A DNA stretch of 34,912 nt from a virus, in the IMG/VR virus record IMGVR_UViG_3300006916_000150, positions 1 through 34,912 of that record. One strand, 5' to 3'. The position numbers and the translations under genes were made by a program. The notes under the pieces are model-generated. The model worked only from the letters and a program-made list of their open reading frames with translations, had not been told where the DNA came from and did no database searches. The first letter of the stretch is position 1. The number at the start of each line of letters is the position of its first letter. Below, in pieces: positions 408 through 30,852 of this stretch.

Positions 408-724
408 TTGCGGCTCATCCACGCCGATACGCCCATGTAGGCTCCGATCACGCCTGCCATAGAGATATAGAACAGTCCCATCAAATCTGAGAGCGCCGAA
501 ACCCTGCTCTCGCTGATCGCTGGAGACATGATCAGGGCAGTAGATCCAATAATCGACGCCATTGCTCCAACAGCCATTCGACGCTGGGCTTCGCTTTTCT
601 CTTCAGCCAATTCCAAGTCCAGCATAGTGCGTCCACGATCAATCTCTTCATCACTAACCACGCCATCATGGTCCAAGTCAAAATCTTCATATCGACTCCT
701 GTCTTGCAATCGTTTCGTACTCAT
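404..724 (-). CDS. EF-hand protein with two membrane helices
   Basis: A 106-residue protein. Residues 14-26 hold a canonical EF-hand loop (DLDHDGVVSDEE: acidic residues at positions 1, 3, 5 and 12, Gly at 6), which should bind calcium. A charged helix follows (about 28-50). Then come two hydrophobic segments, roughly residues 52-70 (GAMASIIGSTALIM) and 82-100 (LMGLFYISMAGVIGAYMGV), both consistent with membrane spans. The ATG at 724-722 overlaps the TGA of the giant upstream gene (ATGA), and a GGAGGG lies about ten bases before it. Proteins of this architecture recur in marine phages as hypothetical proteins. A role in the host membrane, perhaps in lysis or in sensing divalent ions, is only inference. 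Confidence 0.88.
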   Translation of the reverse strand: MSTKRLQDRSRYEDFDLDHDGVVSDEEIDRGRTMLDLELAEEKSEAQRRMAVGAMASIIGSTALIMSPAISESRVSALSDLMGLFYISMAGVIGAYMGVSAWMSRK

Positions 725-3700
725 TCTGTAGACGCCCTCCACCGCTTGTTGTACTCGTCATACAACCGCTCTTCTTGCTCAGCGATACGCTCAATCGCTT
801 CATACCTTTTCAGCGGATCAATAACGTCATTGTTCTCTAGCTTTTTCTTTTCGGATCTAAGTCGGCGCAACGCCTTCTCAATCTTCTGATCGAAAACGGC
901 AAACTGAGGAATGTTGTAGCCACGTTCATCGATCACACCCCTCCTGCCCTCTCTCGTAGTCTGGGACTCAAATGACTTTTCGTGCTGCCGGAAAGCATCT
1001 CGGTTCTCGTAGAAGTCGATTCGATCTGAATACTCGCTAGGCAGAGGCATGAATGTTCGTAGTATCGGGAGGTCTGTACTCCTGAGGTCCGGCTCTTCAG
1101 AGATAAGCTTGGCAATCGTATCGGCGCTGTCATCGAAAAACCTGCCAACACCGCCAAACAAAAACTCAATGACGTGTTGCGCCCTATCAGGGCTAGCTGA
1201 TACACCACCAGTAACATCTTCATTACCGCCCGTGACCTGATTGAGGAAGCGCGTAACAGCGGTGATGTATGTGCTTGTTCCTCGTTTCGTCGGCTCAGAG
1301 GGAGGTATATCAACCAAGAAACTGTTCTGCGGGATAGTGATGTCAGAGCCGAAGAAATTTATGTTACCGAGCTGTTCAGCAAACGCCTCGACAATGTCTG
1401 GTGTTAAACCAATGCCTTTCTGAACAGCCGCCTCGAGGAATCCTGCGTCATCCTTTGCGGCATGAAGCGACAGTGGATTGAAGTGGTGATCGACAGATGA
1501 GGTCAGGTCAACAGCAATCTCTTGGGGCGTCTTAACGCCCATCGCCAGCTCTGCACCGTAACGCCCGATGTTATCGAAGATGCCGTATCCATAAGGCATC
1601 GGTATCGCATACGCCTGCTGCGTCTCAGAGAACGGATTGATCAGGACCATTGAGGTCTTTAGCGCATATTCATTGAAGTCTGCGTACTTCAGCTCACCAT
1701 CATCATCCTCGCCGCCGAAGTCCATGTTCATCAGGGTTCTTGCGAAGCCCCAAGCAACCATCGAGCCTGCGACCAACCTAGCCTTAGTGATCGTTTGCCC
1801 GTCATTCCCAGGTCTCAATATAGCCTTGGCGATGTTGACGTTGCCCTGTACAGCGGCGTTGAAGAACAAATACAGACTATCGATAGCTGAGCTGTACTCG
1901 CCTTTACGGTTGAAGTTAACGGTAAGATCTTTTGCTAGGGTTGCAGCATCTGCTCTTGCGGTCCCAGACTTACGGGCTTCCACATAGGTAGAGAGACGAA
2001 CCGCGTTCTCCATCGTCTGGTTGTAGTCTTCCACCAAGTCGGTCATGTATCTGACTTTCTTACGGAGATCGCCCTGAGTTAGTACCTTCTCGAACCTTCT
2101 GCTCTGCTCGGCAAGACTCTTCGTCATCGAGAGACCAGTTGGCGCTCCATCTTCAACGTACTCTTTAACGTACTGGTCGTATTCTCGATCCCTGTCATTC
2201 GCTCCTTCTTTGCCTCTACGGTTACGCCAGAACGCTTTCAAGGAAGCTTTGTAGCCACCACTGATCTTCCCGATCAGCTCCTGCCCTTGGATACGACCAC
2301 CCACCGTGTCCTGTTCGCTCAAAGCGAAAGCAAGACCGGTTTGGATATCACGCAGCGGGTTGACCAGTCCCCATGAAGGGTTGTAGTTGATCAACATGTT
2401 TCGGCGGAAGTTCTGGAACTTGGTCAGACCGGTCAGGACGGAGTTCATGAAGTCAACATTGTTGTTGAACATCCCAACGCCAGAACTCTGTAGCTGGCGA
2501 TTAAGCTCTCTGTCCTTCACCTCTATGAAGAAGGTCTGACCGCCTCGCTTGACTTGTATGTACTTCAGCAGACCGTCGTCTTTACGGCGTTCGATCTTCA
2601 TACGGGCAAGTGGCATAGACTCCGATGGGTTCTCTGGATCTTGCGGTCTGAACCTGTTGTTCCATACCTGCCAATTACTCTCTGATTCATTCTGCTGTAG
2701 GAGGGCGAGGAGGCGTTGGGCGATGGTATTTCTTTCCGCCCGAATAATTTTTTCTTCAGCGTCCTTGAATGACACCAGAAGAGGGTTAACCGGCAGAGTT
2801 ATCCGCCCCTTCGCCTTGAAGGACTCAGATCCTTTAACGCTGAATCCAGCCGCGCCAACACCGCTTCGCATCTCCATACCCTCTGGGTAGCTCGCAAAGC
2901 CTTTGAGCGGAACATAGAACTGATAGGTATCTTCCCAGTCGGCTCGGGTTTCCTCGTCAAGGAGACCCTTATCCACCATGTTCTGACGCATATCATTCAG
3001 CATCGAATAAACGCGCTCAGCAACAGACTCGAGCACGTCAGTCCTACCCTCGCTTTCAGCGATATCCAGAACGGACTGGGCATCCGCGTTAGTCATACCA
3101 GACCCAGTCTCTTGGTATTTGAGCGGTGCCTCTTCAAGTTTTGCTAGCTTGCGCTCGAGAGCGCCGGTTGGCTCATCAGCGTCTGTGGCTTGCTCGATCT
3201 GGTTCTGAAGTGACTCTATCTGAGCGGATCTCTGCTCACGCTCTTTCCGGGCAATGACCGCGTTGCGCTCTGGGGCATGCTTAGCAAGCAGGTAAAGACC
3301 AACCTGATCCATCTCAAGACCGGCAGCTTTGATCTCCTCACCAATGGTTTCAACATACTCGACCTCGAAATCTTCGAGTTGCTTCTGGGCTTTTGAGTGC
3401 ATCAGATTTTCGGCGTCATAAGCGCTAATCTCTGATGGCAGTCGATCCATACCTAAGCGGTTGGCTATCTCGTCCTCTACCTGCTTGAGGCGCTCGAGGC
3501 GATCTACGACCTTCTGGCGCACATTCTGAGTTTTGGTTTTGTATCGGTTAGCCAAGGAAACGTCAGCAGTAACGTCATCCAGAAGCTTGAAGGGAGCTAT
3601 CTTTTTCTCTTCGTCGTCGTAGAGCATGAAGTCCACGGCACCATCAACCTCGTTGACATAACGACCCAGCGCCGATTTAGTGCCTTGAGAAACCTCGTAT

Positions 3701-6700
3701 GCGTCTAGCCCCTCATCGAATATTGTGATCAGTAAGTCATCGATCCGGTCAAACCCCAAGTAGTCATCACGCTCGAGGGCGCGAATCAGGTTACGGGAGA
3801 CTGGGGATAGAGACTCTAGATCGGTTTGATCTATCTCGAATACGAATTCAGGGAATCCTGCTTCGCTGATTTCATCAGCTAACTTGTTGCGGGTCTCCAC
3901 GAATCGGGATGCCTGCGAGAATGCAGGGTCCATGATCGCATCAAAGTCGTCCGCCTCTTGGGCGATCTGAGCATCTAGCTCTCCCTGTCGGGAGCCATCG
4001 GTGTCGCTGTCTTGAACAACTTCTTCAAAACTGCGTTCGACTTCAGTCGCTTCTCTTTCGGCGTAAGACTCGAGGAGCTTGTCGAGGTTGTCTCGGTTGA
4101 CGCCTTCGGCTTCATACCACGGGAATCCTTTGTCATATTCGCTTACCTTAAATCCTTTGGGCAGGATACCACTCTTCGCCTTCCTGATCTCTTTAATGAA
4201 ATCCGCGAATCCGGTCTTGGTCAGGCGATAAACCTTACCGGTTGAGTCAGGGTACAAGAAGTACTGCTCGCCTTTAGGATCTCGCGCATAGATCGCTCCG
4301 TATCGGAGCATGTTCTGCTTACCCTCTGGAGCGCCCAAATACGCATAGGGAGATTCGTCTCCTCGAACATCATTAACAATGCCCTGCATCGTTGGATGGG
4401 CAACAACCTGACCTGAGTTTAGAACCCAGCTCTCCCAGTGATACCGCCCCACGGACGCCTCATCAGGTCTGCCGATAGCCGTGTACAGGTCTTGTATCCT
4501 GCTTGATAACGCCGCCTCTAAGGCTTCGTACCTAGCCAGTCCATGAAGTCCGTTGAAGTTATCGGCAATGTCATCGTAGATCAGTTTGCCGTAACGACCT
4601 GCATCCCACATGGTGTTCAACTGGATACGATCCAAGATCACCACGTCATCCCTGCCGGTCATTAACAACAAGAAAGAGAAAACCTTATTATCAATGCCGA
4701 TGTTGTTCGCCATGCCTTGGAATTGGCGACGAACTTCCGCAGAAGATATTGATCTATCGGCAATCAGGTCATGCAATTTTTGCAGCTTCGTAACGCCGCT
4801 CTCATCCATCTCGGACATCTTTTGCAAGAACCGACCAAAATCGTTTGCATTGCTGGTCCCTGCTCGCCCGAAAGATCCAGCGGTAATCGCATCTGGAACA
4901 AACGCCTTCCAGTCGGCTACGTCTGAGTCGGTGAACTCGCCCATCAAAGCCTTATCTGCAAAGTCTTCAAAGGTACTTCTGTTTTGACCTTGCGCCGCGA
5001 ACACCATGTCCACGAACCCTGCTTCTTGGGCGCTGGCAGTCAGCATTCGAGACATCATTCCCCACAGCATAAGCTTCGCCGTTACATCGGGAGTAACTAC
5101 GCCCTGCTCGTATAGCTCGCCTAACTCTTTTGCTGTGTTTAGACCTGCACGAGCCGCCTCTAACTGCTCACCGCTAAGCTTGCTGTGAACGCTCGCCCAC
5201 TCCTCGGGATTGTTGTACAGCTTGATTAGACCGTGAGGCGGTCTGAGGGTTTCATTGCTGCCGGTGAGATCTCTCTCGAATCTCAGCCATGATGCCGGTG
5301 AGTCTAGGGCGCTTTGATGGCGTGAAGATAATTCTCTTAGAGCAGGAAGTTGCTTGTCCGCATTCTTGGGACCAATGACCTTGGTGATCGCAGACTTGCC
5401 GCGAACCTTGCCTCTAGATTTTTGGTAAAGATACTGCTTCTCCTCGACTATCGCATCGAAGTCGTCAGCTACTTCAGAAAGCCGTCCAGACTCGTCCCCT
5501 GAAGGTTCTGTGAGCGCGTCTCCCAGTCCTTCACCGGCTTGTTGTCCTTGATCGCCTGCGCCGCCTGCGCTTCCAGCTCGTCCATCGTCAGGAACTTGTA
5601 TGCCTCCGGGGCTGGTAGGTGCCCGAACTTCGCCTGATACGCCTGTACGTTGACCAGCTTGTTCGGTTTCTTGAATTGTCTGGTTTGCATTGCTGCCTCT
5701 ATCCCTACGTTCTTGGATGATCTCCTCGACAGGGCGAGGGTCTCTCTGGATGTCGCGCATCAGTTTATACGCTTTCGGAGCTGCTTGCTGTAACAGCTCT
5801 GGATTCGATATGTATGTCGCACCTAGTTGCGCGAAGACTTCCCGCCTCATGGTCAAAGCCACGCTATCGAGGTCGCCCTTGCTCGAATCCTCCAAGGATT
5901 GCAGGTATGTGAACGGGTAGTTAAATACCTCACCCAGCTCGGTGCCTGAATCCCATTGGTCGAACAACTCCGATACAGCATCACCCATATTCAGCGTGAA
6001 AGCATCTTCGGAATCCCTGCTAACACGGAAGCTTAAACTGGGCAGGTACTCTGAGTACTTCTTCTTATCGTCTTGGGCATGCCACATCTCGTGCGCCAAG
6101 ATCGTAATAAGCTTTCTTGCCTCAACATCGTTCGTTGCCGCTTCATTAAGAAAGTTTTCATTGAGACCGAGCGAACCCGTGTTGGTGAAGTTGATTGCTT
6201 TGACGCTCATAGGCGCAGACACAGCAGCAGGAGTGAAGCTGTACAGTCCGCTCATTTGATCTTGGATAACGTCTGCTGGCATACCTCTTTCAAAGATGTC
6301 TGCCATCGCACTCATAACCATCCTGATTTGAGGCGACTGATCGAGAACATCGTTGATTGAAGTATCGGGCGATACAAAGGTATTCAGTAATGGCTGTAAC
6401 TCAGTCACTCTTCCGCCAACCGTCTTACCTCTAGGCGCTTGCCCCTTACCGCTCAACTGACGAATCATCTCGCCCAGGGTAGGAATCTTTTGAGTGATGA
6501 TGGTGTCATCGTTTGCGGGTTGAGTGGATTCCCCGCCGATATTTTTGTTCAGCTCAGCTATACGACCAACTAAATCCTTGCCATCTCCCGAGCGATCAAC
6601 AAATGTTTCACCGGCTACCCTAAAACGAGTGGCAGCAGGCTCTTGGGACGGAGCCATTCGATCAGGGGTGTTTGCTAAATCACCCGTGACAAACTGCTCG

Positions 6701-9252
6701 ATATCCGCCGCCAAGCCTTCGTCTGGAACCACCATCGCGTCCATCTGATCGCCATCACCATCAAACTCTGCTTGGCGAATCTGTTTTAGCTTTGATATTG
6801 CTTCTTTTCGGTTTTCGCCTAGATACCCTTCAAGCTGTTCAGCATCAGCGTCGTACCAACTACTATTTTGTTCATCGTAGTAAATCGTTCTGACATCACC
6901 GTCTGGATATGTCAGGACGTACTCACCATTGAAATCGAAATCAGGATCGCGCTTGAGCTTTGGATCTGCATCCGGCTGGGATACTCGACGGCCCTGATTT
7001 GCCTCCGAGACCTCTGTCTCAGCCTGTGCTGGCGCTGATTGTGGTGCGGTTGATTCAGCATCTGTTATATCAGTATCGCCGTACTGGCTGTTCATCCATT
7101 CAATGGCTTTCTTCTTGCCCATGCTGGCTGGCAAATAGAACTCTTCCCCGTCCTCGAGGATTATCTGATAAGCCTTGCCGGTATTGACCTTTCCGGTCTT
7201 GGCGCTGATGTAATCAGTAGTAACAGTCTTGCGAATAGTGCCTTTGATCGGAGGATTCAGTACTGGTGCCTGCCTGATCGCAGCCAGCTCCGCTTGCATG
7301 CGCTGGAATCGTGGCGAGTCTTCGCCCTTACCAAAAGCTGAGACATCTTCCCTGAGAATGGCGTCTTGGATAACCGGACTCGTCAGGTCAGCATCTTGAT
7401 ACCTCTGGAAGCTTGGAATCCGGCGATAGTTTTCGCCGTATGCTCTCTTAAAGAGTTGCTCGTTCTCGGTTTCCGCAACGTCAGCCTCTGTCTGTGTAAA
7501 CGCGGGGCGTCTGCCGGTCTGCTCCACTTGCCCACGAAGATCCTCAAGAGATTGATCTGTAGTTACAGTCTGATCTTCCGTCTCGATGGTTGTGGTTGCT
7601 GCTGGCTCATCCGGCGTTACGAACCGATACCGACCATCTCCAATTGATACAACCTGACCGCTCGCCGCCAGATCGGTTATTGCTTCAACAGTTGGGTTGT
7701 ATCCAGCACGAATATCTTTCTGTATATCAGAGACGCTGAACTCACCGAATAGCTCGGCTGACATACGCGCACGGGTAGCTAGGTCCAGTTCTTCAGGCTG
7801 GACTATCTCAAGCTCTGGAGGTTGGGGTGCAGGAGCTGGTTCGTCTGCATCGTCTACCGCTGTGTACACGATCTTGCCGCCAGAGACTTCAGACTTGATC
7901 CTTCCCTGATCAATCAGAATGTCTAGGATCTCCTGCTGCTGCTCACCAGTTAGACCGTTGTCTTTCGCCAGCTCGTCGCGATTAACGCCAGCGGATATCT
8001 CTATGGTTTCAAGAGTGTCTGTCAGTCTTTGAGGATCTGCCGATGTTGGGTTTTCCGGCTCAATATCTAAAGGAGCTTCTGCCGCAGCGATAACTGCTTT
8101 TTTAGCCTCTAGCTGTCGCTGCTGTCTCTCTTCTTCATGCTTTACATCAAGGACCGGGGTGCCGTCTTCTGAATCAATAGACTTAAATCCGCCCATGGTA
8201 GAGCCGAGAGCGCCGCCAGCAATCGAACCCGCAGTCGCCGCATGCAAATAGCTTTGAACCGCCTCTTCGTTAAACAGATAGCCCGTGAACAAAGCCTGAT
8301 CTTGCTCAGACAAATTCTCTTTAGCCCACATTACGGAGGCGCGACTAATAAACTCCTGCCCAGCCTCCGTTAGACCCTCTGCACCGGCAGACTTAAATCC
8401 CTCCTCGAGCATATTGCCGATACGCTTACGCCCAGCGTTCGTGAGAGCCTCGTCGGCAATGTATTCCTTTAGATCGGTCAATGCTTTTGGATTGTCCGGG
8501 AAAGCGCCTCGGACTGCCCTGAACGGCGCACCAACCCGGTCCAGTGCGCCCGAGAACAAGCCAGCGACCAATGCTGTACCCGGATCTTCCAGACCCGTTT
8601 CCTCGTAGATGCGAGCGAAACTCTCTCCGAAAGCCATCCCTGAAGAGGCTACGCCTGACCCCGTGGCAACCCCCATCTTTGCGTATTTATTGGCAACCTG
8701 CTCTTTGTATGCGTTGGTTATTTTGTTCTTAACAGTCTCATCAATTATCCCTCGGGCGGACTCTTCCATTTTCTCTTTGGCTATACGCTCAATTGCTTCT
8801 TTGCCAGCCGTCTTCGCTACAGTCTTCGCAACCGCACCGCCTATGCCGCCACCGACAGCCGTTGTAGCCAGCGATGGGATGGCATTGCCCAAGGTATAAA
8901 AGGCAAAGTTGCCGAAGTCAGAAAGACTATCGAAAGCGTCATCAAAGTTACTGATGGGAGCGTTCTGTGACGCCTCCTCCATCTGCTGACGGTAGTAGTC
9001 GAAGCCAGCCTGCTTCATTTCTTCATCACCGATACTAGAGCCGATACCAGCCTGCACAGCTCCAGCTAGGGCTTGCTGCTGATCTATGCCCGAAGAAAAT
9101 CCAGCGGCTAGCTGATCAAATGGGGAAAATTCTGGACCCTCAGCTTCTTCGTCTTGAGCAGCCCTAGACCTTCCGCCTACTCGAGACAGCTCGTCTTCTT
9201 CAAGAGAACGGGTGTATCCATTTCTGATTTGCTCAAGAGAAACTAATGCCAC
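721..9252 (-). CDS. Giant polyvalent phage protein (2843 residues) with HExxH metallopeptidase motif and LPD38-like region
   Basis: The largest gene in the window, placed after the internal-protein genes and probably ejected with the DNA. Visible regions in order: Gly/Ala-rich hydrophobic segments (about 117-155 and 338-354) that could enter membranes; two winged-helix-like modules (about 405-468 and 489-547); long acidic, low-complexity linkers; a zincin signature HEMWH at 1054-1058 (LITILAHEMWHAQDD), as in metallopeptidase domains of polyvalent proteins; a globular region about 1270-1650; a coiled coil near 2000-2045; a segment with YVPLKG and RAERNTIAQRLLALL near 2100-2200; and an LPD38-like part with NYNPSWGLVNPLRDIQTG near 2285. 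It ends in a charged helical tail. Polyvalent proteins (described by Iyer and colleagues) enter the host with DNA and carry several effector activities. The GTG start overlaps the upstream TAG (TAGTG). The polyvalent class is well supported; the individual activities are inferred. Confidence 0.9.
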   Translation of the reverse strand: MALVSLEQIRNGYTRSLEEDELSRVGGRSRAAQDEEAEGPEFSPFDQLAAGFSSGIDQQQALAGAVQAGIGSSIGDEEMKQAGFDYYRQQMEEASQNAPISNFDDAFDSLSDFGNFAFYTLGNAIPSLATTAVGGGIGGAVAKTVAKTAGKEAIERIAKEKMEESARGIIDETVKNKITNAYKEQVANKYAKMGVATGSGVASSGMAFGESFARIYEETGLEDPGTALVAGLFSGALDRVGAPFRAVRGAFPDNPKALTDLKEYIADEALTNAGRKRIGNMLEEGFKSAGAEGLTEAGQEFISRASVMWAKENLSEQDQALFTGYLFNEEAVQSYLHAATAGSIAGGALGSTMGGFKSIDSEDGTPVLDVKHEEERQQRQLEAKKAVIAAAEAPLDIEPENPTSADPQRLTDTLETIEISAGVNRDELAKDNGLTGEQQQEILDILIDQGRIKSEVSGGKIVYTAVDDADEPAPAPQPPELEIVQPEELDLATRARMSAELFGEFSVSDIQKDIRAGYNPTVEAITDLAASGQVVSIGDGRYRFVTPDEPAATTTIETEDQTVTTDQSLEDLRGQVEQTGRRPAFTQTEADVAETENEQLFKRAYGENYRRIPSFQRYQDADLTSPVIQDAILREDVSAFGKGEDSPRFQRMQAELAAIRQAPVLNPPIKGTIRKTVTTDYISAKTGKVNTGKAYQIILEDGEEFYLPASMGKKKAIEWMNSQYGDTDITDAESTAPQSAPAQAETEVSEANQGRRVSQPDADPKLKRDPDFDFNGEYVLTYPDGDVRTIYYDEQNSSWYDADAEQLEGYLGENRKEAISKLKQIRQAEFDGDGDQMDAMVVPDEGLAADIEQFVTGDLANTPDRMAPSQEPAATRFRVAGETFVDRSGDGKDLVGRIAELNKNIGGESTQPANDDTIITQKIPTLGEMIRQLSGKGQAPRGKTVGGRVTELQPLLNTFVSPDTSINDVLDQSPQIRMVMSAMADIFERGMPADVIQDQMSGLYSFTPAAVSAPMSVKAINFTNTGSLGLNENFLNEAATNDVEARKLITILAHEMWHAQDDKKKYSEYLPSLSFRVSRDSEDAFTLNMGDAVSELFDQWDSGTELGEVFNYPFTYLQSLEDSSKGDLDSVALTMRREVFAQLGATYISNPELLQQAAPKAYKLMRDIQRDPRPVEEIIQERRDRGSNANQTIQETEQAGQRTGVSGEVRAPTSPGGIQVPDDGRAGSAGGAGDQGQQAGEGLGDALTEPSGDESGRLSEVADDFDAIVEEKQYLYQKSRGKVRGKSAITKVIGPKNADKQLPALRELSSRHQSALDSPASWLRFERDLTGSNETLRPPHGLIKLYNNPEEWASVHSKLSGEQLEAARAGLNTAKELGELYEQGVVTPDVTAKLMLWGMMSRMLTASAQEAGFVDMVFAAQGQNRSTFEDFADKALMGEFTDSDVADWKAFVPDAITAGSFGRAGTSNANDFGRFLQKMSEMDESGVTKLQKLHDLIADRSISSAEVRRQFQGMANNIGIDNKVFSFLLLMTGRDDVVILDRIQLNTMWDAGRYGKLIYDDIADNFNGLHGLARYEALEAALSSRIQDLYTAIGRPDEASVGRYHWESWVLNSGQVVAHPTMQGIVNDVRGDESPYAYLGAPEGKQNMLRYGAIYARDPKGEQYFLYPDSTGKVYRLTKTGFADFIKEIRKAKSGILPKGFKVSEYDKGFPWYEAEGVNRDNLDKLLESYAEREATEVERSFEEVVQDSDTDGSRQGELDAQIAQEADDFDAIMDPAFSQASRFVETRNKLADEISEAGFPEFVFEIDQTDLESLSPVSRNLIRALERDDYLGFDRIDDLLITIFDEGLDAYEVSQGTKSALGRYVNEVDGAVDFMLYDDEEKKIAPFKLLDDVTADVSLANRYKTKTQNVRQKVVDRLERLKQVEDEIANRLGMDRLPSEISAYDAENLMHSKAQKQLEDFEVEYVETIGEEIKAAGLEMDQVGLYLLAKHAPERNAVIARKEREQRSAQIESLQNQIEQATDADEPTGALERKLAKLEEAPLKYQETGSGMTNADAQSVLDIAESEGRTDVLESVAERVYSMLNDMRQNMVDKGLLDEETRADWEDTYQFYVPLKGFASYPEGMEMRSGVGAAGFSVKGSESFKAKGRITLPVNPLLVSFKDAEEKIIRAERNTIAQRLLALLQQNESESNWQVWNNRFRPQDPENPSESMPLARMKIERRKDDGLLKYIQVKRGGQTFFIEVKDRELNRQLQSSGVGMFNNNVDFMNSVLTGLTKFQNFRRNMLINYNPSWGLVNPLRDIQTGLAFALSEQDTVGGRIQGQELIGKISGGYKASLKAFWRNRRGKEGANDRDREYDQYVKEYVEDGAPTGLSMTKSLAEQSRRFEKVLTQGDLRKKVRYMTDLVEDYNQTMENAVRLSTYVEARKSGTARADAATLAKDLTVNFNRKGEYSSAIDSLYLFFNAAVQGNVNIAKAILRPGNDGQTITKARLVAGSMVAWGFARTLMNMDFGGEDDDGELKYADFNEYALKTSMVLINPFSETQQAYAIPMPYGYGIFDNIGRYGAELAMGVKTPQEIAVDLTSSVDHHFNPLSLHAAKDDAGFLEAAVQKGIGLTPDIVEAFAEQLGNINFFGSDITIPQNSFLVDIPPSEPTKRGTSTYITAVTRFLNQVTGGNEDVTGGVSASPDRAQHVIEFLFGGVGRFFDDSADTIAKLISEEPDLRSTDLPILRTFMPLPSEYSDRIDFYENRDAFRQHEKSFESQTTREGRRGVIDERGYNIPQFAVFDQKIEKALRRLRSEKKKLENNDVIDPLKRYEAIERIAEQEERLYDEYNKRWRASTE

Positions 9253-12980: not shown

Positions 12981-13018
12981 CACTGCCTTTCCAGCAATCT
13001 TCCTTGAGGTTATTGAAC

Positions 13019-13141: not shown

Positions 13142-13600
13142 TTATCCCGGTGGGTCTGGGAACACAACATCGTCAATGCTCGTGACATAGCCAAAGTCTT
13201 CAGGCAAATCACGAAGCTCCTGCCGGTACATCTGCCACTCACTGCGTTGCTCTGCGCTCAACGGAGAGTCTGTTGCTTGTGTCCAATCACTGCTTTTTAG
13301 GCGACCATCTCTTATTGTCCTAACTGCTAACCACAACTCAGATTGAGCATGAGCAGTAAGCTGCCCGTCTTCAGAAAATCTTGGGTCTACATAACTCTTG
13401 GTCTTGTAGTCGAAAACATGATGCTCCGTGGGCGAGTCACCCATAGGCACCACTTCACCGTCCTGAACATAGGAATTATACCATTCGCCCGAAAACTCAA
13501 TAAAATCTGTAGCAGGAGCAAGGTCTTGTGTAGTGGGTGGTGAACCTTTGCTGGAAAACAATATTTTGCCTTCGTCGTTAAAACCAATATACGACTTCAT
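13142..13600 (-). CDS. Phage tail assembly chaperone-like protein
   Basis: A 152-residue protein. The C-terminal part carries the pattern of phage tail assembly chaperones of the Phage_tail_APC type: an Arg-rich helix (LAVRTIRDGRLKSSDWTQA), then a Pro-Leu step and SEWQMYRQELRDLPED near residues 118-137. The N-terminal half is beta-rich and fibre-like (YIGFNDEGKILFSS). It begins ATGA over the stop of the large tail fibre gene, exactly where fibre chaperones are found, so it probably helps fold or trimerise that fibre. It is the last gene before the main intergenic region. Confidence 0.82.
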   Translation of the reverse strand: MKSYIGFNDEGKILFSSKGSPPTTQDLAPATDFIEFSGEWYNSYVQDGEVVPMGDSPTEHHVFDYKTKSYVDPRFSEDGQLTAHAQSELWLAVRTIRDGRLKSSDWTQATDSPLSAEQRSEWQMYRQELRDLPEDFGYVTSIDDVVFPDPPG

Positions 13601-16600
13601 CGCAACGCACCTTGCAAAGTCATTATTGCGCTTTGTACCTTTATGAACGGCGTATTTGCTGTGAAGTTATAAGCCTCCTGAACTTTGAGCACATAAGTAC
13701 TCGATCCATTCGGGGGATTCTCGTCCAAAGCAGATACAGGTACTAAGCTCCGACCATGAATGTAGATTGGCGAGGTGTAGGTAGACCCCGGAATTGTTGC
13801 ATACGCAGCAGATAACCTAGTTGCGTTCGACGCCGTGCCATCAAAGACTTCTATGAATACCGTGATCGGACTGGTTGACTCGTTAGAAATCGATAACGCG
13901 CCTGATATACGAACCGCTGAATTTGAGTCAACTGCCGCAAGGGAGATTGAATCAGACAGCACAGTAACTTTTCCAGAATTACCAGCAATGTTGATCACCG
14001 ACGTAGTTTCTTTCGTCTCCATGATCGTTACTGCCTGACCCGCAATAAACAGAGTATCGACCGAAGCTGCGCCCAGCTTCAAGACGCCGTTGTTACTGGT
14101 GATAGTCGATCCGTCGATGTTGAGGCGGGAGGTGCTTATTGTTCCCGCGTTAATTTTTCCAGCGTCAAGGTTTGCGATCTTTGCGTTGTCTATAGCCGCA
14201 TCAGCGATCTTCGCGTTGGAAATCGTTCCGTTCTTAATGAACGCCGAATCCATGTAAACACCAGCGGGGACAGATTCCCCACCAATCGTTGTGGATGAAG
14301 TCTGAACGCTAAACGGAACACTTGCAGTGGTGGTGTCTGACCCGCCGCGCATGATCGCAAACCGATCAGCGTTCACTATGAACTCGGACGTGATGTTGCC
14401 TGAGCCATTGTCAGTGCTTGCAAGACCAAAACCCGCGACTGCTCCGTTGGTGTCAATCTTGACCGTGTACCTGCTGCGAAGCCCGTTTACGTTTGATGCG
14501 CTTGATTCCAACGCTGTTTGCAATGTTGTGTTCTGTTGCCCTGTCGTTGGATTCGTATACGAGGCAGCTAGTTGACTCATCTGCGTAGCCGACGCTGTTT
14601 GATTTCCACCTGAGTCCAGAATCTGGTTCTTCATGCTTGATAGGTTTGTCGCTGAGACAACAGCATTACCGTTACCATCAAACAGAATGTTATCCAATTC
14701 ATCGATACGAGAAGAACTCGAAGTTCCATTCGGAAAGATTTCTGTGTTCAGGAGACTTACAGCGGTGGCAGAGCCAAATTTAAAGGTTCCGTCACCGTTG
14801 TATATGGCGCTGTTCAAGGTGTCGATTCGAGAGGATGTCGCACCGCCAGACCCGTATACCTCAGTATTCAATGCCGATAAGGCGGTAGCAGTGGTGGACG
14901 ACAACTCTTCCAGCTCTGTGACCTCGTTGATCACAAAGCCTTGAATTTCCCAGTAGCCTGCTTGACCGCTGTAGTTGTCAAGAAACTCTGGCTGAAAATA
15001 CTTAACACCCGTTTGCCAGTCGCTGCTGTCCCAAATGTAAACGTATTCGTACCAGTCGTTTGTAGTGCCAGCGGTGCTGTTGTGGTTCGCTCGGTTAAAC
15101 CCTGATGGCTTATACGGCGACCTGCCGCCATTGTTAGGGCCAGCAGAGCCTGTATTGTTCAGAAACTGCCGAAGTGAAAAATACAAAAGACCAGACGCAT
15201 TCGATGAAGGTCTTGCCCAGAAACGGACTTGATACTTCTTTGTTGGATCAATGGGTATGTAGTTGCCTTGGTTTGGGTAGTTGCCAGCATTGCCCGTAAG
15301 ACGAAGAACCTCATTGCCAACCTTTCCGTTAGAGATGGTCTGAATGCTATGACCGTTAAGATTCCAAGCGTTGAATGGCAAAGAAATGTTTGCGTTTTGT
15401 ACCGTGCTTTCCAGCGCATCAATTGAGGAGGCGCTGGTATTTCCGTTGGGGAAAACTTCCGTATTCAGCGCATCTACAGCGGAGGAGGTCGCGCCTAAGC
15501 CAGAAGTTGGATCGTTGATAGTTGAAGTCAGGGAGTCGATTCGAGAGCTTGTGGCACCCCCCGGCGTTACACCGCTTCCCCATACCTCTGTTTGAAGAAG
15601 GCTAACAGCAGACGCGCTTGCCAATTCAACATTACCATTTGCATCGAAGACTGCGCCTTTAAGGCTAGTGACATCTTCGCTGATGCTTTTCACAACACTG
15701 GGATTGCTGCCGTCGTAAATTGCCTCAACCTCAGTAGTCAGAGAGGACAAAGCTGAGGCGGTCGCCAAACGCGAAGTGTTGTCACTGTTAAAGACCTCAG
15801 TCTCTAGATCAGTCACGTCACCCTGAATTGTTTTAACGACGCTGGGGTTCGACCCATCGTAGATCGCCTCCACATCATTTGTCAGACCAGATAGGGCGGT
15901 CGCGGTGGCAAGCTGTAAAGTACCGCCAGAATCGAAAACCGATGCGTTAAGCTCGGTCACATCTGTTTGAATCGTTTTCACGATACTGGAATTGTTCCCG
16001 TCGTAAATCGCCGTTACATCGGATGTCAGACCTGCTAACGCCGCCGATGTGGCTAACTGGGATATTCCATTGGAATCAAAGACGATGCCGTTCAGGGCTG
16101 TCACATCTGACTGAGTGCTGGAGATCGAGTTTCCTTGACTTGTTACCGTACTGGTCAGGGCGGTCAGTGCAGCGGAAGTCGCCAACTTCACAGCACCAGA
16201 GTTATCGTATACCACTCCTTTAAGCGCAGTGATATCAGACTGAGAAGTGCTGATCGAATTACCTTGGGTGTTCACAGTCGTTTGCAGCGTCGAAAGCGCA
16301 GATCCTGTAGCCAGTCTTGCCGTTCTGTCTGAGTTGAAAACCTCAGCATCTAACGCCGTGACATCTGTAACCAGTGCGGAGATGTCCCCATCATTCGAGG
16401 TTACCTGACTCGTCAAATTTGACAGCGCAGAGGTGGTAGCGATCTGCGAAATGCCATTCGAGTCAAACACGACATTCTTCAAAGATGTCACATCGCTGCT
16501 GACGGTGGTCACCGTGCCATTCAAGTTCGTGACGGTAGTGTCCAGCACGTTAAAAGCTGAGGCTGAGGCGAGCTTAGAGCTTCCATCCGTGTTGAAGACT

Positions 16601-17601
16601 TCTGCGTTCAGCGTGTTGATTGAGGATTGGTTGGATGCAATACGAGGGTCTTGCAGGCTTACCCACGCAGTGCCGCTATAGTAGTAAACAGCCATGTTGT
16701 CATCGCTGTCATACCACCGGCTGTTGGTGGCAATCGTCCCGGTTGGCGCTGACGTTTGAACGTACACGGTTCCAACATTCGCTGTGAGATCGGTGATGCT
16801 GGACTGAAGGTTGCTTACGTTGCCGGTCAGGGTCGTCAGTGAGCTGTTGATCGAGCTAACCGAAGTATTCAACGAAGTAACCGCAGTGTCCGTAGACGTA
16901 ATTCTGGTTAAAAGGTTATCTGCCGAATACGTCGAGGTGTAACCAGTGTAATTTTCTATGTCGTCCAGCAACGATTCAATCGTGTCAACCTTGCCAATCG
17001 GAGTTGAAAGCTCCGTTGCCAGCTCTGAGTTAGTGATCTGATTAGCTAACAGATTGAGCACCAAAGCCACATCAGTAGCCGTAGTTCCAGAGGTTCCGGT
17101 ACTTGAATTGAATGGTCCTGAAATCCCCGCCTGATTGACAGCGCGAACCCAGTAATAGCGCGTGAGACCACCACCAACCGGATCTGCATAAACCCCAGTG
17201 AATCCAGAAACCTGAGCAACCATCGTCGCCGCGCTGATATCGTCGGATGTGTGTCTTAACACTTCAACGTAGGAGTGACCCTCGTATAGGGACAGATCCC
17301 AGGTCAGTATGATGTTCTGGAAAGCACCAGACGCCTGAAGGTTCGTTGGCGCTGGAGGGATATCTAGGCTTGGTATCTCGTCGCGAGACGGCACAAGATC
17401 CCGCGTATCGCCGAACAAACTTACCCCTCGCGCAAGGGTGACAATGCCTGTATCCAGCAGATCCTTGAACGTAACCGCACGATCAAGGGCGTCTCCCCGA
17501 TGACCAAGAAGTACGTCGAGGTTTTCCTTTAAGCTGTCGCCGAATCGCCTGTCTTGAGCCGACCAGCTCGGAGGATCTGTGAGATTGCTTTTACGCGGCA
17601 C
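13597..17601 (-). CDS. Lambda J-like tail tip/central fibre protein with tandem repeats
   Basis: A 1334-residue fibre. Visible parts: an N-terminal region (1-75) that may dock to the tail; a fibronectin type III domain (about 82-172, with NIILTWDLS and YYWVRAVNQAGISGPF); helical linkers; eight tandem repeats of 43-48 residues (about 325-676); a carbohydrate-binding-like beta-sandwich (about 739-892); a domain like the C-terminal part of lambda J (about 1048-1162, with EFIVNADRFAIMRG and FIKNGTISNAKIADAAIDNA); and a unique beta-rich end that may bind the receptor. The GTG at 17601 follows GGGAG closely and overlaps the upstream stop by 11 bases. An in-frame GTG at 17628 is an alternative and would give 1343 residues. 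It is unusual in a short-tailed phage, since J belongs to siphoviruses. The exact start is uncertain. Confidence 0.85.
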   Translation of the reverse strand: MPRKSNLTDPPSWSAQDRRFGDSLKENLDVLLGHRGDALDRAVTFKDLLDTGIVTLARGVSLFGDTRDLVPSRDEIPSLDIPPAPTNLQASGAFQNIILTWDLSLYEGHSYVEVLRHTSDDISAATMVAQVSGFTGVYADPVGGGLTRYYWVRAVNQAGISGPFNSSTGTSGTTATDVALVLNLLANQITNSELATELSTPIGKVDTIESLLDDIENYTGYTSTYSADNLLTRITSTDTAVTSLNTSVSSINSSLTTLTGNVSNLQSSITDLTANVGTVYVQTSAPTGTIATNSRWYDSDDNMAVYYYSGTAWVSLQDPRIASNQSSINTLNAEVFNTDGSSKLASASAFNVLDTTVTNLNGTVTTVSSDVTSLKNVVFDSNGISQIATTSALSNLTSQVTSNDGDISALVTDVTALDAEVFNSDRTARLATGSALSTLQTTVNTQGNSISTSQSDITALKGVVYDNSGAVKLATSAALTALTSTVTSQGNSISSTQSDVTALNGIVFDSNGISQLATSAALAGLTSDVTAIYDGNNSSIVKTIQTDVTELNASVFDSGGTLQLATATALSGLTNDVEAIYDGSNPSVVKTIQGDVTDLETEVFNSDNTSRLATASALSSLTTEVEAIYDGSNPSVVKSISEDVTSLKGAVFDANGNVELASASAVSLLQTEVWGSGVTPGGATSSRIDSLTSTINDPTSGLGATSSAVDALNTEVFPNGNTSASSIDALESTVQNANISLPFNAWNLNGHSIQTISNGKVGNEVLRLTGNAGNYPNQGNYIPIDPTKKYQVRFWARPSSNASGLLYFSLRQFLNNTGSAGPNNGGRSPYKPSGFNRANHNSTAGTTNDWYEYVYIWDSSDWQTGVKYFQPEFLDNYSGQAGYWEIQGFVINEVTELEELSSTTATALSALNTEVYGSGGATSSRIDTLNSAIYNGDGTFKFGSATAVSLLNTEIFPNGTSSSSRIDELDNILFDGNGNAVVSATNLSSMKNQILDSGGNQTASATQMSQLAASYTNPTTGQQNTTLQTALESSASNVNGLRSRYTVKIDTNGAVAGFGLASTDNGSGNITSEFIVNADRFAIMRGGSDTTTASVPFSVQTSSTTIGGESVPAGVYMDSAFIKNGTISNAKIADAAIDNAKIANLDAGKINAGTISTSRLNIDGSTITSNNGVLKLGAASVDTLFIAGQAVTIMETKETTSVINIAGNSGKVTVLSDSISLAAVDSNSAVRISGALSISNESTSPITVFIEVFDGTASNATRLSAAYATIPGSTYTSPIYIHGRSLVPVSALDENPPNGSSTYVLKVQEAYNFTANTPFIKVQSAIMTLQGALR
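15570..16630 (-). repeat. Eight tandem 43-48-codon repeats inside the J-like fibre gene
   Basis: Each unit follows the pattern S/T-D-V-T-x-L-x-x-x-V-F-D/N-S-x-G/N-x-x-x-L-A-T-x-S/A-A-L-x-x-L-T-x-x-V. The last units carry an added AIYDGSNPSVVKTI insert. Units are clearly related at protein level and diverged in DNA, so this is an old expansion that probably builds a long trimeric shaft. Boundaries are approximate. Confidence 0.75.
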
Positions 17602-19240
17602 CAACCTCTCCCGCTGATTCGTAGACACAGACCTCGTTCACCGATACAGATCCCTCGATCTGAATCTCGAACTCATTGGCTTTGTAACCACCGGGGAGTC
17701 GGAACAACGAACTGTTGGTTACCGACTGAGTGTGTTTGAGGTTCCCATCCGCATAGAGCTTGAGCGTGGGGGCTGGAGAGTACGAATCGCACTCTAGTTT
17801 TGCGACTCCGGGATTGATCGGTCTCTGGGTGTAAAACTTTTTGCTCTTCCAAGTGAACGATAGGTTTGACCCGCCAGCAAATTTTACGACAGAGCCACCG
17901 ACAACCAAGTACAACTCATCATTCGCCAGATCGTTGAAGCCTGCTGTAGCGTAGAAATCCAGTTTGACGTATGAGTTCTTGCCGCCTCGAGGATCAAAGA
18001 TGAATCCCTTTGATTCGCTGCCGTTGGAATAAAACCCGAGGTAATAACCCTCCCAGTGAAAGCCGATCACGCTGGATGGAGACAGATCCTGCCATTGGTC
18101 TCGGGAGAGAATGCTCTCCGTGGCTACTGACAGACCACTATCTCGAGCAGCAACCAATCCATCGGGGCTGGCGTACATGACGTATTCGCCCATGTCTACG
18201 ACGCTTCGCTTGCTTACGCAGGACAACGTACTGTCGATCTCGATCATCGACATGCTTGAAGGATCTAAGCCTTGAATAAGTGCTGGCTTTTCTTTCGTGA
18301 GCACCAGCAAGCCCGTGTTCAGAGGCGCTAATGCAACCACATCGCTCTTGATCGTCAGCTTGTAAGCATCGGGAAATGCATGGGGTTGAAACGCCTCTGA
18401 GAAGCAAACGGTTTGACCGGAGAATCCTGCTAAAAAGCCGTTAGGCATACTGACAAGACCAAGCAGAGGTCCGTCCTTGTGGTCCGAAGAAACCTCGTCT
18501 GGCGGCGCTATCCAGCCTCCTGACGGTATAGCCTCGCCCAAGTTGGCGTCTGTCACAGTGTCGTTGAAAGTGTCTGTTGCGAGAGCAACGTCCGCGACAA
18601 ATCGAAACGTCCCATTGGGGTCAGTCCGGTACAAACGCTTCTTCAGTAGGTTGTGGTTCCCACTGGGGTTCGCAGGGAAGTTAACCGTAACTGATTGATC
18701 AGAGTAAACGTCTACAATCTGGCTGACCAACGAGGTTGAGGGGGCACCTTCTTCGCCGTAGTAGCTGACGTAGGTGAAGACATAAGCTCGTGATATGGGC
18801 GTCTCAGTATCCGTTTTCGTGGTCGTGCCAACCAGGGTAACCGAGTCGAAAGACGCGGGATCAGGAATGCCAAGCTTGTAGTATGTCCCGTTACCCACTG
18901 ATGTGGCGCTGCTCATCCGAGGGTAGCCGGTTGCACTACCCATACCCGATACATAGATACGCTCGTGTTGATCCTCCGCAATCGGACTTCTGACAATGTC
19001 TAGATCCTCATTGCTGCCAATCCAGATGCTGTCGCTGTACTTGAAGAGCGTCTTAGTCAGCGCAGACACGGAGTAGCTCGCGACAGGCGTAATAGATGCC
19101 GAGCTGTTTCCTGCCCACGGATCGAGGCGACCAGAGTCCAAGCGGGTGTTGATCGCTTCTTGCGCCATGTCTTCAGGCAATAACCGTGCGCTCACGCGAG
19201 GAGCTTTGCCAGAAAATGTTTGGAGCTTGAATCCAGTCAC
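17591..19240 (-). CDS. Beta-propeller-type tail protein (nozzle/stabilisation protein), putative
   Basis: A 549-residue, mostly beta-strand protein. The N-terminus (FKLQTFSGKAPRVSARLLPE, then AQEAINTRLDSGRLDPW) is the recognisable start of a tail protein found in many phages, in which short strands build propeller blades. Repeating blade-like units include LLGLVSMPNGFLAGFSGQTV, DVVALAPLNTGLLVLTKEKP and DMGEYVMYASPDGLVAA. In short-tailed phages such proteins form the tail nozzle or tube end, a role played by gp12 in T7; homology to gp12 is not claimed. The GTG at 19240 has AGGAG seven bases upstream and overlaps the holin stop (GTGA). It lies between the holin and the J-like fibre. Confidence 0.78.
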   Translation of the reverse strand: MTGFKLQTFSGKAPRVSARLLPEDMAQEAINTRLDSGRLDPWAGNSSASITPVASYSVSALTKTLFKYSDSIWIGSNEDLDIVRSPIAEDQHERIYVSGMGSATGYPRMSSATSVGNGTYYKLGIPDPASFDSVTLVGTTTKTDTETPISRAYVFTYVSYYGEEGAPSTSLVSQIVDVYSDQSVTVNFPANPSGNHNLLKKRLYRTDPNGTFRFVADVALATDTFNDTVTDANLGEAIPSGGWIAPPDEVSSDHKDGPLLGLVSMPNGFLAGFSGQTVCFSEAFQPHAFPDAYKLTIKSDVVALAPLNTGLLVLTKEKPALIQGLDPSSMSMIEIDSTLSCVSKRSVVDMGEYVMYASPDGLVAARDSGLSVATESILSRDQWQDLSPSSVIGFHWEGYYLGFYSNGSESKGFIFDPRGGKNSYVKLDFYATAGFNDLANDELYLVVGGSVVKFAGGSNLSFTWKSKKFYTQRPINPGVAKLECDSYSPAPTLKLYADGNLKHTQSVTNSSLFRLPGGYKANEFEIQIEGSVSVNEVCVYESAGEVGAA

Positions 19241-20744: not shown

Positions 20745-20753
20745 TCGATGCTC

Positions 20754-21512: not shown

Positions 21513-21521
21513 TACTTGCTC

Positions 21522-28709: not shown

Positions 28710-28895
28710 TTATTCGATTGCGGATATCCTCGAAGGGGTCCGCTGCTTGTCGAGAACCGCTTTCGCGGCGTCCTCAAGTTCCAATAGGAAACGGATCTCA
28801 CTGACCCGACCCTGCTCGAACCTGAAATTCTTTTCGTCTGCTTGCTCTAACCGACTCTGCGAGTCTTCCAACCTACATTGGAATAGGTTGATCAC
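28710..28895 (-). CDS. Small coiled-coil protein overlapping the portal gene end
   Basis: A short frame between portal and scaffold. With the GTG at 28895 it encodes 61 residues, mostly one amphipathic helix (RLEDSQSRLEQADEKNFRFE, then VSEIRFLLELEDAAKAVLDK). Similar 70-90-residue helical proteins sit after portal genes in many phages. Residues just upstream in the same frame (LWLRHQDQWQQ) resemble the usual start of that family, so the true start may be further upstream, inside the portal gene; the frame stays open to 29048. No good ribosome site is visible for any start. The coding call is moderately supported; the start is unsure. Confidence 0.55.
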   Translation of the reverse strand: MINLFQCRLEDSQSRLEQADEKNFRFEQGRVSEIRFLLELEDAAKAVLDKQRTPSRISAIE

Positions 28896-30852
28896 CTGCT
28901 GCCATTGGTCCTGATGGCGGAGCCATAGGACCGCCTGCGCCTGCTGCGGCGAGAGCTTGATTTTGGAGGGCTTGCTGTTCAGCTTGTAACCTCTCTTCAG
29001 ACTTAATAATTTCGTCAGGATCGATATCCATCGATTGCGCGATATCACGCAACAACCGTGGTCGATCTACTAATGCCAAGTCCGTGGGATTGGAGACAAG
29101 CGACAAGAACTGAAGGAGTCGCTGACTCTGCACTTCTTTTTGTACAAGGGCAGTGCTACCCCTTGGTACGACCTTGAGGTCGCCTTTTGCTTTCTCGTTA
29201 GTGCCAAATTCCATGTTGTAATGAAACAACGCCTGAACCATAGGCTCTAATAAGAAGTCATCGATGTTCTTAATGGTGCTCTTCAGTGCGATATTCGCAG
29301 CACCCATCAACATCGACATACCAGTTGCGGTTTTGTTCAAACTACGCGACTGCTCACCGTGAGTATACGACGGCAAACTAGTCGTTTCATCCGCAAATCT
29401 TCTAAACAATTCAACGATTTGGTTCAAACCGTTAGCGTTAGCGACAGGCTGATACCAACGTACCGCTGGCATAGATCCGTCACCACCTTCCCGCAACCAA
29501 ACGCGCCAAGGATGGATGTCGGTTGGGTCTTCACCAGCCGCCAGAAGGTCTGTGTTGACCTCCATCATAGGACCGCTAGACAGGGCTAGGTTGTCTAACC
29601 AGATACGAGTAGCGGCGTTCATGGTCGTCTGAGAGTCACGCATCATGCGCGGTACGCCAGTGCCCCAAAACTGATGAGGTGATCGCTCATACGGGAAGAT
29701 CTGGTACGGGATTTTGTACCCCGCAACAGGATTCAACATAACCTTTAAGACGCTGGTCCCGCATATCCAAACGCAAGCACTATAAGTATCACTGAGATCA
29801 GCGTCTTCAGGCAGCTCGATGTTGTGATCTTTGAGGTCGTATCCATCAATGGTTCCCCAGTACTCTAATACTTGGAAGCGGTGGCTCTCTGCGTGGTCGT
29901 GAATACCAGCGATTCGGCGGCGATCACGCTCGTGCTCCTCCTCAACGTGGTTACCTTTACGGTTGTTCTTGAGCAGGTACTTGATCTCGTCCGAATCAAA
30001 CCCCGGTAGATCTGACAGGTCTCTGAATTGCTTTCGCGTCAAAACGTGACGGCGGAACAATCCTTCGCAGTCGTCCAGAGTCGTGCAGTAAGGGTCTGGA
30101 TATAGATCGAAGATAGAGACTGACTCAACCTCTGGCATCGGCTTCTCAATCTGAGCCAGAGCAAAGCCCTGCTGACCTGTCTGCGGGTCAATCACTTGAG
30201 AGTAAGACTGAGTCCTATCGATCTTGACCGTACCGGCTTTAACCGCGCCAGATCCAAAGATGCATGCTTCAAGGATACTTTCCTTGAGCTTCATCTCTGC
30301 GTTGTTCTCGATGAGCTGATCCTCTATCTCCAGAGTCATAGCCTCGGCAGCTTTCTCCGCGATATCTTTCTCTGCCCCAACAAACTCGTCTTCCAGCTCC
30401 ATCATCCGGGCAGCAATCAGATCCTGATTCATCGCAGGGTCCATGCCGCCCGAAGCAGCGACAACTTGCTGCATAGCCATCTCGCGCATCTGCATGGCTT
30501 TGATTGGGCTGATCGTAGGAACGGGGGTTGGATGTATTGCGAAATACAAATCGCCGTACTGGAATAACAGGTCGATGATCCGGCTGTACGCCGCCATGAC
30601 TTTTGTTCTGGTCAGACCAACAAAGACTTTTGATCGAGCGCCACTCTCATTCAAACGCGCTAGAACGTCTGGCTCATACTGACCTTGATACTGACGAAGG
30701 TCTTTCAGCCACTCGTTCTCAGTTTCTTTGCGAGCGTCTTTGTATTCTTGAAACACGTCAGAAAGCCTAGCGCCCAAACTGACCAGCTCTTGGTCTTGGT
30801 TGCCATCGTATTCAGCGTCGTCTTCAGGAACGTCTAACTCGTACTCAGCCAT
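28873..30852 (-). CDS. Portal protein
   Basis: A 659-residue portal, the dodecameric ring at the capsid vertex through which DNA passes. Recognisable parts are an early helical region (about 30-60), the clip/wing segment with RSKVFVGLTRTKVMAAYSRI, the region SIFDLYPDPYCTTLDDCEGL, ERSPHQFWGTGVPRMMRDSQ, and the crown-side segment SLNKTATGMSMLMGAANIAL. These match portals of short-tailed phages in my memory. It overlaps the terminase stop by one base (TGATG), in the usual terminase-portal-scaffold-coat order. The C-terminal end is rich in Gln, Ala, Gly and Pro. ATG at 30852 is used rather than the TTG at 30855. Confidence 0.9.
   Translation of the reverse strand: MAEYELDVPEDDAEYDGNQDQELVSLGARLSDVFQEYKDARKETENEWLKDLRQYQGQYEPDVLARLNESGARSKVFVGLTRTKVMAAYSRIIDLLFQYGDLYFAIHPTPVPTISPIKAMQMREMAMQQVVAASGGMDPAMNQDLIAARMMELEDEFVGAEKDIAEKAAEAMTLEIEDQLIENNAEMKLKESILEACIFGSGAVKAGTVKIDRTQSYSQVIDPQTGQQGFALAQIEKPMPEVESVSIFDLYPDPYCTTLDDCEGLFRRHVLTRKQFRDLSDLPGFDSDEIKYLLKNNRKGNHVEEEHERDRRRIAGIHDHAESHRFQVLEYWGTIDGYDLKDHNIELPEDADLSDTYSACVWICGTSVLKVMLNPVAGYKIPYQIFPYERSPHQFWGTGVPRMMRDSQTTMNAATRIWLDNLALSSGPMMEVNTDLLAAGEDPTDIHPWRVWLREGGDGSMPAVRWYQPVANANGLNQIVELFRRFADETTSLPSYTHGEQSRSLNKTATGMSMLMGAANIALKSTIKNIDDFLLEPMVQALFHYNMEFGTNEKAKGDLKVVPRGSTALVQKEVQSQRLLQFLSLVSNPTDLALVDRPRLLRDIAQSMDIDPDEIIKSEERLQAEQQALQNQALAAAGAGGPMAPPSGPMAAGDQPIPM

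What the first reader, a model, noticed from the sequence alone, without database searches (positions are those of the whole stretch)
13597..17601. Siphovirus J-like tip module within a short-tailed phage gene order
The 1334-residue fibre has FN3, a repeat shaft, a carbohydrate-binding-like insert and a lambda J-type C-terminal domain, but no other long-tail genes are visible. This suggests transfer of a host-recognition module between tail types, with an N-terminus adapted to a podovirus nozzle.
Basis: partly seen in the sequence, partly recalled or inferred. Interest (0 to 1): 0.6.

Follow-up and report, generated by a model that had tools for sequence, protein, structure and literature searches.

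The report
Lambda-J-like fibre on podovirus nozzle
This marine virus with a short tail carries a long attachment fibre whose middle and end are built like the tail-tip fibre of long-tailed phage lambda but whose first ~55 residues fit a short-tail nozzle; it is a clear example of an arrangement already known from a few studied phages, not a new kind of machine.

Summary
Window 13597-17601, on the minus strand, encodes a 1334-residue fibre. It has a ~55-residue N-terminal anchor, an FN3-type domain homologous to the second Ig-like domain of lambda J, a coiled-coil and 43/48-residue-repeat shaft, a CBM4-like domain, the J-type domain PF09327 (E 9e-13), and a variable tip. It lacks J's hub domains and J's own receptor-binding domain. 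The phage is a podovirus: SU10-type portal and adaptors, a nozzle homologous to a solved one (E 2.5e-74), and no tape measure, either in the window or in a circularly closed 53-kb relative. The anchor is absent from five siphoviral J proteins and recurs in fibres after homologous nozzles, so "N-terminus adapted to a nozzle" is supported. The arrangement is widespread (about 50 viral contigs plus Vibrio, Aeromonas, Achromobacter and Stx-type podoviruses) and published: the SU10 needle carries the same J-type domain, and DEV gp56 is gpJ-like. The backbone fusion is old and its direction unresolved. Local exchange is real: tip and downstream genes match one relative at 87% DNA identity from a sharp breakpoint, and the CBM-like domain is shared with true J proteins. 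Best reading: a central nozzle fibre or needle that binds the final receptor and triggers ejection.

The parts
13597..17601 (-). J-like central tail fibre gene, 1334 aa (GTG start); residue numbers below are those of the 1343-aa ORF from 17628
17431..17601 (-). N-terminal nozzle anchor, residues 10-66, motif ENLDVLLGHRGDALDRAVTFKDLLDTGIV
   Evidence: Profile matches podoviral fibres; none of the five siphoviral J proteins tested matches; similar motif in other genes after the nozzle in Bcep22-like phages
17083..17358 (-). FN3-type domain, residues 91-182, homologous to lambda J second Ig-like domain
16783..17082 (-). helices and coiled coil, residues 183-282; weak needle-like similarity (phrog_1219, P22-type gp26)
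16645..16770 (-). small beta domain, about residues 287-328
   Evidence: AF2 model
15514..16611 (-). repeat shaft (43- and 48-residue units), about residues 340-705
14863..15408 (-). CBM4-like domain, residues 741-922, absent from the fibres of the close relatives fetched, 45% identical to segments of siphovirus J-type proteins
14104..14508 (-). PF09327 Phage_Tail_Tip (J-type) domain, residues 1041-1175
   Evidence: profile match to 7z4b and 9ze4 in the PDB
13600..14085 (-). variable tip, presumed receptor-binding, residues 1182-1343
   Evidence: 93% identical to L018 only; breakpoint at 14085
13142..13600 (-). tail fibre assembly chaperone (PF16778)
   Evidence: its 5' half differs with the tip among relatives
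17591..19240 (-). tail nozzle (beta-propeller) protein, 549 aa
   Evidence: PDB 8jov E 2.5e-74; phrog_511; 170 phage records
25262..25885 (-). SU10-type adaptor-family protein
   Evidence: PF24175
25885..26562 (-). SU10-type adaptor protein
   Evidence: PF24175
26885..27742 (-). major capsid protein
   Evidence: PF25209 and phrog_267
28873..30855 (-). SU10-type portal
   Evidence: PF23899
30852..32465 (-). large terminase
   Evidence: phrog_2
721..9252 (-). giant LPD38 protein, presumed internal or ejected virion protein

Best explanation
The gene encodes a trimeric central tail fibre of a podovirus. Its N-terminal ~55 residues dock in, and probably help close, the distal end of the hexameric propeller nozzle encoded just upstream. 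From the FN3 domain onward the chain is the distal ('central straight fibre') half of a lambda-J-type protein: FN3, coiled-coil and repeat shaft, J-type PF09327 domain, and an exchangeable tip, with a CBM4-like domain inserted in the shaft of this phage. The tip binds a final receptor on the outer membrane, perhaps helped by glycan binding through the CBM-like domain. Receptor binding pulls or twists the fibre out of the nozzle, and the internal proteins and DNA are then ejected. Shown here: domain content, podovirus identity, the podovirus-specific anchor, and modular exchange of the tip. Inferred: trimer state, docking site, plug function, receptor and glycan binding.
For: Podovirus machinery: SU10_portal and two SU10_adaptor matches; nozzle homologous to solved chain 8jov_A. 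Fibre gene directly after the nozzle in about 50 viral contigs, with conserved residues 1-200 and a conserved J-type domain but shafts giving ORFs of 588-1863 aa. Residues 67/91-220 match siphoviral J proteins only after their hub region (Nitrincola J 1091-1216, Cyrano J 726-863, Mcat5 J 716+), and lambda J 711-827 by profile, which is lambda's second Ig-like domain. The anchor profile finds no siphoviral J; of the four post-nozzle Bcep22-like genes put in the search, Skulduggery gp23 (1.8e-4) and Itty13 gp8 (0.15) outrank all 1739 other ORFs, while PBC5 gp18 is weak and IL02 gp64 is not found. Solved precedents: the N-terminal model's best PDB match is DEV 9ze4_N, 'Tip attachment protein J central straight fiber' (E 5.9e-9; profile 6.4e-16); the C-terminal profile's best match is 7z4b_EA (1.7e-16), from SU10, whose three-chain needle plugs the nozzle channel and detaches at genome release (PMC9509320). 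Experimental relatives: a short-tailed Stx phage fibre lies at the tail end by immuno-EM (PMC5155283) and BamA blocks infection by EM-classified Stx podoviruses (PMC12502783). DEV lacking gp56 leaks DNA (PMC12892993).
Against: No complex of anchor and nozzle could be modelled. The anchor helix is predicted with only moderate confidence (pLDDT about 50-77). The C-terminal model is poor (mean pLDDT 59). In DEV the J-like fibre sits beside a separate plug (gp74), not in the channel, so the docking site here could be lateral. The anchor match to Bcep22-like genes is significant only for Skulduggery.
Confidence: 0.75

Rival explanations
1. The fibre is attached laterally, next to a separate nozzle plug, as DEV gp56 is next to gp74; it acts as a receptor-sensing lever, not as the plug itself.
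For: The best structural match of the N-terminal model is DEV gp56, which is lateral to the plug (PMC12892993).
Against: DEV has a different, 12-fold tail tube. Here the anchor belongs to a sequence type found right after propeller nozzles; the SU10 needle, which carries the same J-type domain, is axial.
Confidence: 0.2
2. The phage is a siphovirus whose tape measure and tail tube lie outside this 35-kb record.
For: The record is a fragment, about two thirds of the size of a closed relative.
Against: A circularly closed 53-kb relative (terminal overlap 161 bp, 99.4%) with 69-84% identical nozzle, portal, adaptor and capsid proteins encodes no tape measure or tube; nozzle and SU10-type adaptors are short-tail parts.
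Confidence: 0.02
3. The similarity to J is inherited from a common ancestor of podoviral and siphoviral central fibres, or passed from podoviruses to siphoviruses; no siphovirus-to-podovirus transfer made this backbone. (A question of origin: it does not compete with the mechanism above.)
For: The FN3 tree has very long J branches; one origin of the anchor-bearing forms is not rejected (p-AU 0.088); J-like domains occur in several unrelated podovirus groups (SU10, DEV, Presley).
Against: The CBM-like domain (45% identity with segments of J-type proteins) and the tip show that parts do move between phages.
Confidence: 0.4
4. The J resemblance is a low-complexity or convergent artefact of S/T/N-rich fibre sequence.
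For: The shaft is repetitive and gives weak chance-like matches.
Against: PF09327 is above its curated cut-off; the FN3 and PF09327 regions match J proteins separately and in the same order; profile matches to solved J-like fibres.
Confidence: 0.02

Closest known systems
SU10 gp18 tail needle (Kuravirus, PDB 7z4b)
   Same: Podovirus; homologous portal and adaptor families; J-type PF09327-like domain in a three-chain rod in the propeller nozzle
   Different: 322 aa; P22-needle-like coiled coil; no J-type FN3 domain or CBM reported; no similarity to this anchor or nozzle was seen in the PDB sequence searches
DEV gp56 short tail fibre (Schitoviridae, PDB 9ze4 chain N)
   Same: Podovirus fibre with a J-type FN3 domain and J-type C-terminal part; involved in tail closure
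   Different: Only about 30 residues before FN3; attaches beside plug gp74 on a 12-fold tube; carries separate receptor-binding proteins gp54 and gp55; 429 aa
Short-tailed Stx phage fibre (Sp5 ORF67 / Traversvirus)
   Same: Anchor and FN3 homologous (32-34% over up to 95% of the 220-residue query); follows a homologous nozzle; at the tail end by immuno-EM
   Different: Collagen-like repeats and tail-fibre C-terminal domain instead of the J-type C-terminus; BamA receptor
Aeromonas phage phiARM81mr 'tail tip fiber protein'
   Same: Same gene order, length (1322 aa), anchor, FN3 and PF09327
   Different: Different shaft and tip, no CBM match; a reverse transcriptase gene lies just upstream
Lambda gpJ
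   Same: Second Ig-like domain and PF09327, in the same order
   Different: J hub domains and Ig_GpJ_C receptor-binding domain are absent here; the anchor is absent in J

Membership tests
Lambda gpJ-type tail tip protein | PF09327 Phage_Tail_Tip domain | tested here: met
   E 9.4e-13
Lambda gpJ-type tail tip protein | FN3/Ig domain equivalent to J second Ig-like domain before PF09327 | tested here: met
Lambda gpJ-type tail tip protein | Hub domains FNIII-A_GpJ, Phage-tail_3, Ig_J | tested here: not met
   No match; all present in lambda J
Lambda gpJ-type tail tip protein | C-terminal receptor-binding domain Ig_GpJ_C (PF12421) | tested here: not met
   No match
Podovirus central fibre or needle with J-type domain (SU10 gp18, DEV gp56) | Encoded by a short-tailed phage next to its nozzle or tail tube | tested here: met
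   Homologous nozzle next to the fibre; podovirus gene set and no long-tail genes
Podovirus central fibre or needle with J-type domain (SU10 gp18, DEV gp56) | Sequence homology to the solved examples | tested here: met
   9ze4 6.4e-16 and 7z4b 1.7e-16
Podovirus central fibre or needle with J-type domain (SU10 gp18, DEV gp56) | Trimeric, docked at the tail tip, needed for tail closure | not testable with these tools
   No complex modelling and no virion available
Stx-podovirus (Traversvirus) fibre family | Homologous anchor and FN3 after a homologous nozzle | tested here: met
Stx-podovirus (Traversvirus) fibre family | BamA receptor | not testable with these tools
   The C-terminal region differs from that described for these phages; receptor unknown
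Siphovirus tail tip | Tape measure and tail tube genes in the same genome | tested here: not met
   window; closed relative

The most novel reading that the evidence does not exclude
The ~55-residue anchor is a general nozzle adaptor of the GP4/933W/Bcep22-type podoviruses. It exists as a small stand-alone protein in some and is fused to whatever fibre is at hand in others (J-type here, tail-fibre-type in Stx phages, another C-terminus in Skulduggery), so that one short peptide explains how such phages take fibres from long-tailed phages.
Probability: 0.4. Interest if true: 0.5.

Novelty: new member of a known kind. Interest (0 to 1): 0.38.

Why it matters
It gives a concrete map of how a tail-tip receptor-recognition module passes the border between tail types: a short podoviral anchor, a junction just before the FN3 domain, a shaft of variable length, and a tip that is swapped together with part of its chaperone. 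It also extends the SU10 and DEV findings to a marine clade of at least fifty contigs. If the anchor really is the nozzle dock, it offers a way to predict which podoviral gene is the central fibre and where its joint lies.

Tried and rejected
PF00041 does not hit the FN3 domain; a structure model was needed. No relative of the nozzle was confirmed in genome contigs, so no host lineage can be given. The CBM-like domain has no match in the phage record collection; only five viral contigs carry it. BcepIL02 gp64 has no PDB homologue that would show the anchor in a structure (best E 0.77). tblastn with Itty13 gp8 and Skulduggery gp23 found no wider family. The FN3 tree could not settle the direction or number of transfers. 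The siphovirus-fragment reading was rejected from the closed relative. The C-terminal AF2 model is of low confidence, and its fold matches are used only in support of sequence evidence.

Full report
WHAT IS THERE. The record is a 34,912-base IMG/VR virus contig. Its structural genes run on the minus strand: large terminase, SU10-type portal, scaffold-like gene, major capsid protein, two SU10-type adaptor-family proteins, tail proteins, nozzle, fibre, fibre chaperone, GNAT enzyme, internal proteins, and a giant LPD38 protein. The fibre gene is 13597-17601. The longer start at 17628 is unlikely because the frame is closed upstream of residue 10 in several close relatives, and a GGGAG lies about 7 nt before GTG 17601. 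Residue numbers below are those of the 1343-aa ORF.

DOMAINS. Residues 1041-1175 match PF09327 (Phage_Tail_Tip), E 9.4e-13. Residues 91-182 form a predicted FN3-type beta-sandwich with block pLDDT mostly 85-93, matching FN3 structures. Residues 236-282 are coiled coil. The shaft has 43- and 48-residue repeats. Residues 741-922 are 40-45% identical to segments in five viral contigs. Two of these segments lie in proteins with the J hub domain Phage-tail_3, one of which also has FNIII-A_GpJ. The model of this stretch matches CBM4-2 (TM about 0.5), but the model as a whole is poor. The tip, 1186-1343, is shared only with L018 among the fetched relatives.

PODOVIRUS, NOT SIPHOVIRUS. The 549-residue protein is a nozzle: phmmer E 2.5e-74 to 8jov_A. 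From my own knowledge that entry is Ralstonia podophage GP4; its structure paper is cited in PMC11784390. The nozzle has relatives in 170 phage records, among them Bcep22-like JC1, a podovirus by EM (PMC9144972), and Stx podoviruses classified by EM (PMC12502783). Relative G005, 53,055 bp, closes on itself with a 161-bp, 99.4% overlap, and its terminase, portal, capsid, adaptors and nozzle are 69-84% identical to the window's. Outside the shared block it has a primase-helicase, Sak-like and RecE-like proteins, an integrase and an anti-restriction protein. No tape measure or tail tube was found. Its only large unassigned ORF is a T/S-rich repetitive 803-aa protein in the tail-fibre block.

THE JUNCTION. 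With the first 220 residues as query, podoviral fibres match from residue 3-35 on, while siphoviral J proteins match only from residue 67-91 on. In those J proteins the matching stretch starts after the hub (about residue 680-1090). A profile of the FN3 region reaches lambda J 711-827, which is Pfam's second Ig-like domain of J (716-818). The fibre therefore equals the distal half of a J protein, without the hub and without J's own receptor-binding domain. The anchor profile (residues 10-88) finds all podoviral fibres of this type and none of the five J proteins. Of the four post-nozzle Bcep22-like genes put in, Skulduggery gp23 (1.8e-4) and Itty13 gp8 (0.15) outrank all 1739 other ORFs, PBC5 gp18 scores 1.7, and BcepIL02 gp64 is not found. 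By eye they share E-x-L-x-V-L-x-G-x-R-G and a following R-A-V-x-x-x-D-L. This supports, but does not prove, a common nozzle anchor.

MODULAR EXCHANGE. The close relative L018 is 74.6% identical in DNA over the nozzle and fibre N-terminus, has no DNA match over most of the fibre, then is 86.9% identical without a break from window 14085 down to 10025. The change falls at the border between the PF09327 domain and the tip; the tip proteins are 93% identical while the neighbouring PF09327 domains are 52%. In L022 the 93% identical block begins only at 13339, inside the chaperone gene, and its tip is unrelated. The tip and the first half of its chaperone thus behave as one exchange cassette. The CBM-like domain is absent from the fibres of the close relatives.

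HOW IT PROBABLY WORKS. Solved podoviral relatives set the model. SU10's tail needle (three chains of gp18, which I take to be chain EA and its two copies in 7z4b) carries the same J-type domain (profile E 1.7e-16), sits in the propeller nozzle channel, and detaches at genome release (PMC9509320). DEV gp56 (9ze4_N, 'Tip attachment protein J central straight fiber') matches the anchor-FN3-coil model best of all PDB entries (profile 6.4e-16). Its loss makes virions leak DNA, and the authors already suggest horizontal spread of that module (PMC12892993). A short-tailed Stx phage fibre, homologous at its N-terminus by the present search, lies at the tail end (PMC5155283). I infer a trimeric central fibre that docks by its anchor in the nozzle, meets the final receptor with its tip, and opens the nozzle on binding. 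A lateral position, as in DEV, is the main rival.

WHAT IS KNOWN AND WHAT IS NEW. J-like central fibres and needles in podoviruses are known. New here are the marine clade, the mapped anchor/J junction, the possible stand-alone form of the anchor, and the tip-chaperone exchange.

Noticed in passing
19863-22262: Three tandem paralogous tail proteins starting MAN(R/K)FPL with similar C-terminal domains, between nozzle and adaptor genes.
   Followed up: no
24888-25262: 124-aa protein with a sub-threshold match to BppU_N (PF10651), a siphovirus baseplate domain; possibly another long-tail module in this podovirus.
   Followed up: no
12516-12983: GNAT-type acetyltransferase downstream of the fibre; an acyl-CoA N-acyltransferase gene occupies a similar place in Bcep22-like phages (BcepIL02, Itty13, Skulduggery).
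   Followed up: partly
13142-13600: Fibre chaperone gene whose 5' half varies with the tip while its 3' half (PF16778) is conserved; DNA identity resumes at 13270-13339 in four relatives.
   Followed up: yes
14814-14847 and 15528-15561: 82% identical 34-nt direct repeats flank the CBM-like domain, 714 nt apart; a possible route of its gain or loss.
   Followed up: no
L067 16517-17803, L084 3666-5317: Reverse transcriptase genes (with an annotated Avd gene in L084) just upstream of the nozzle in phiARM81mr and Vibrio phage 1F273_PE002; no such gene was noticed in this window.
   Followed up: no
L090 10600-13008: 803-aa T/S-rich, highly repetitive predicted tail protein without database match in a relative.
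   Followed up: no
L072 2670-9071: Acinetobacter phage Presley (N4-like) encodes a 2133-aa tail protein with a J-type C-terminal domain 48% identical to this one.
   Followed up: partly
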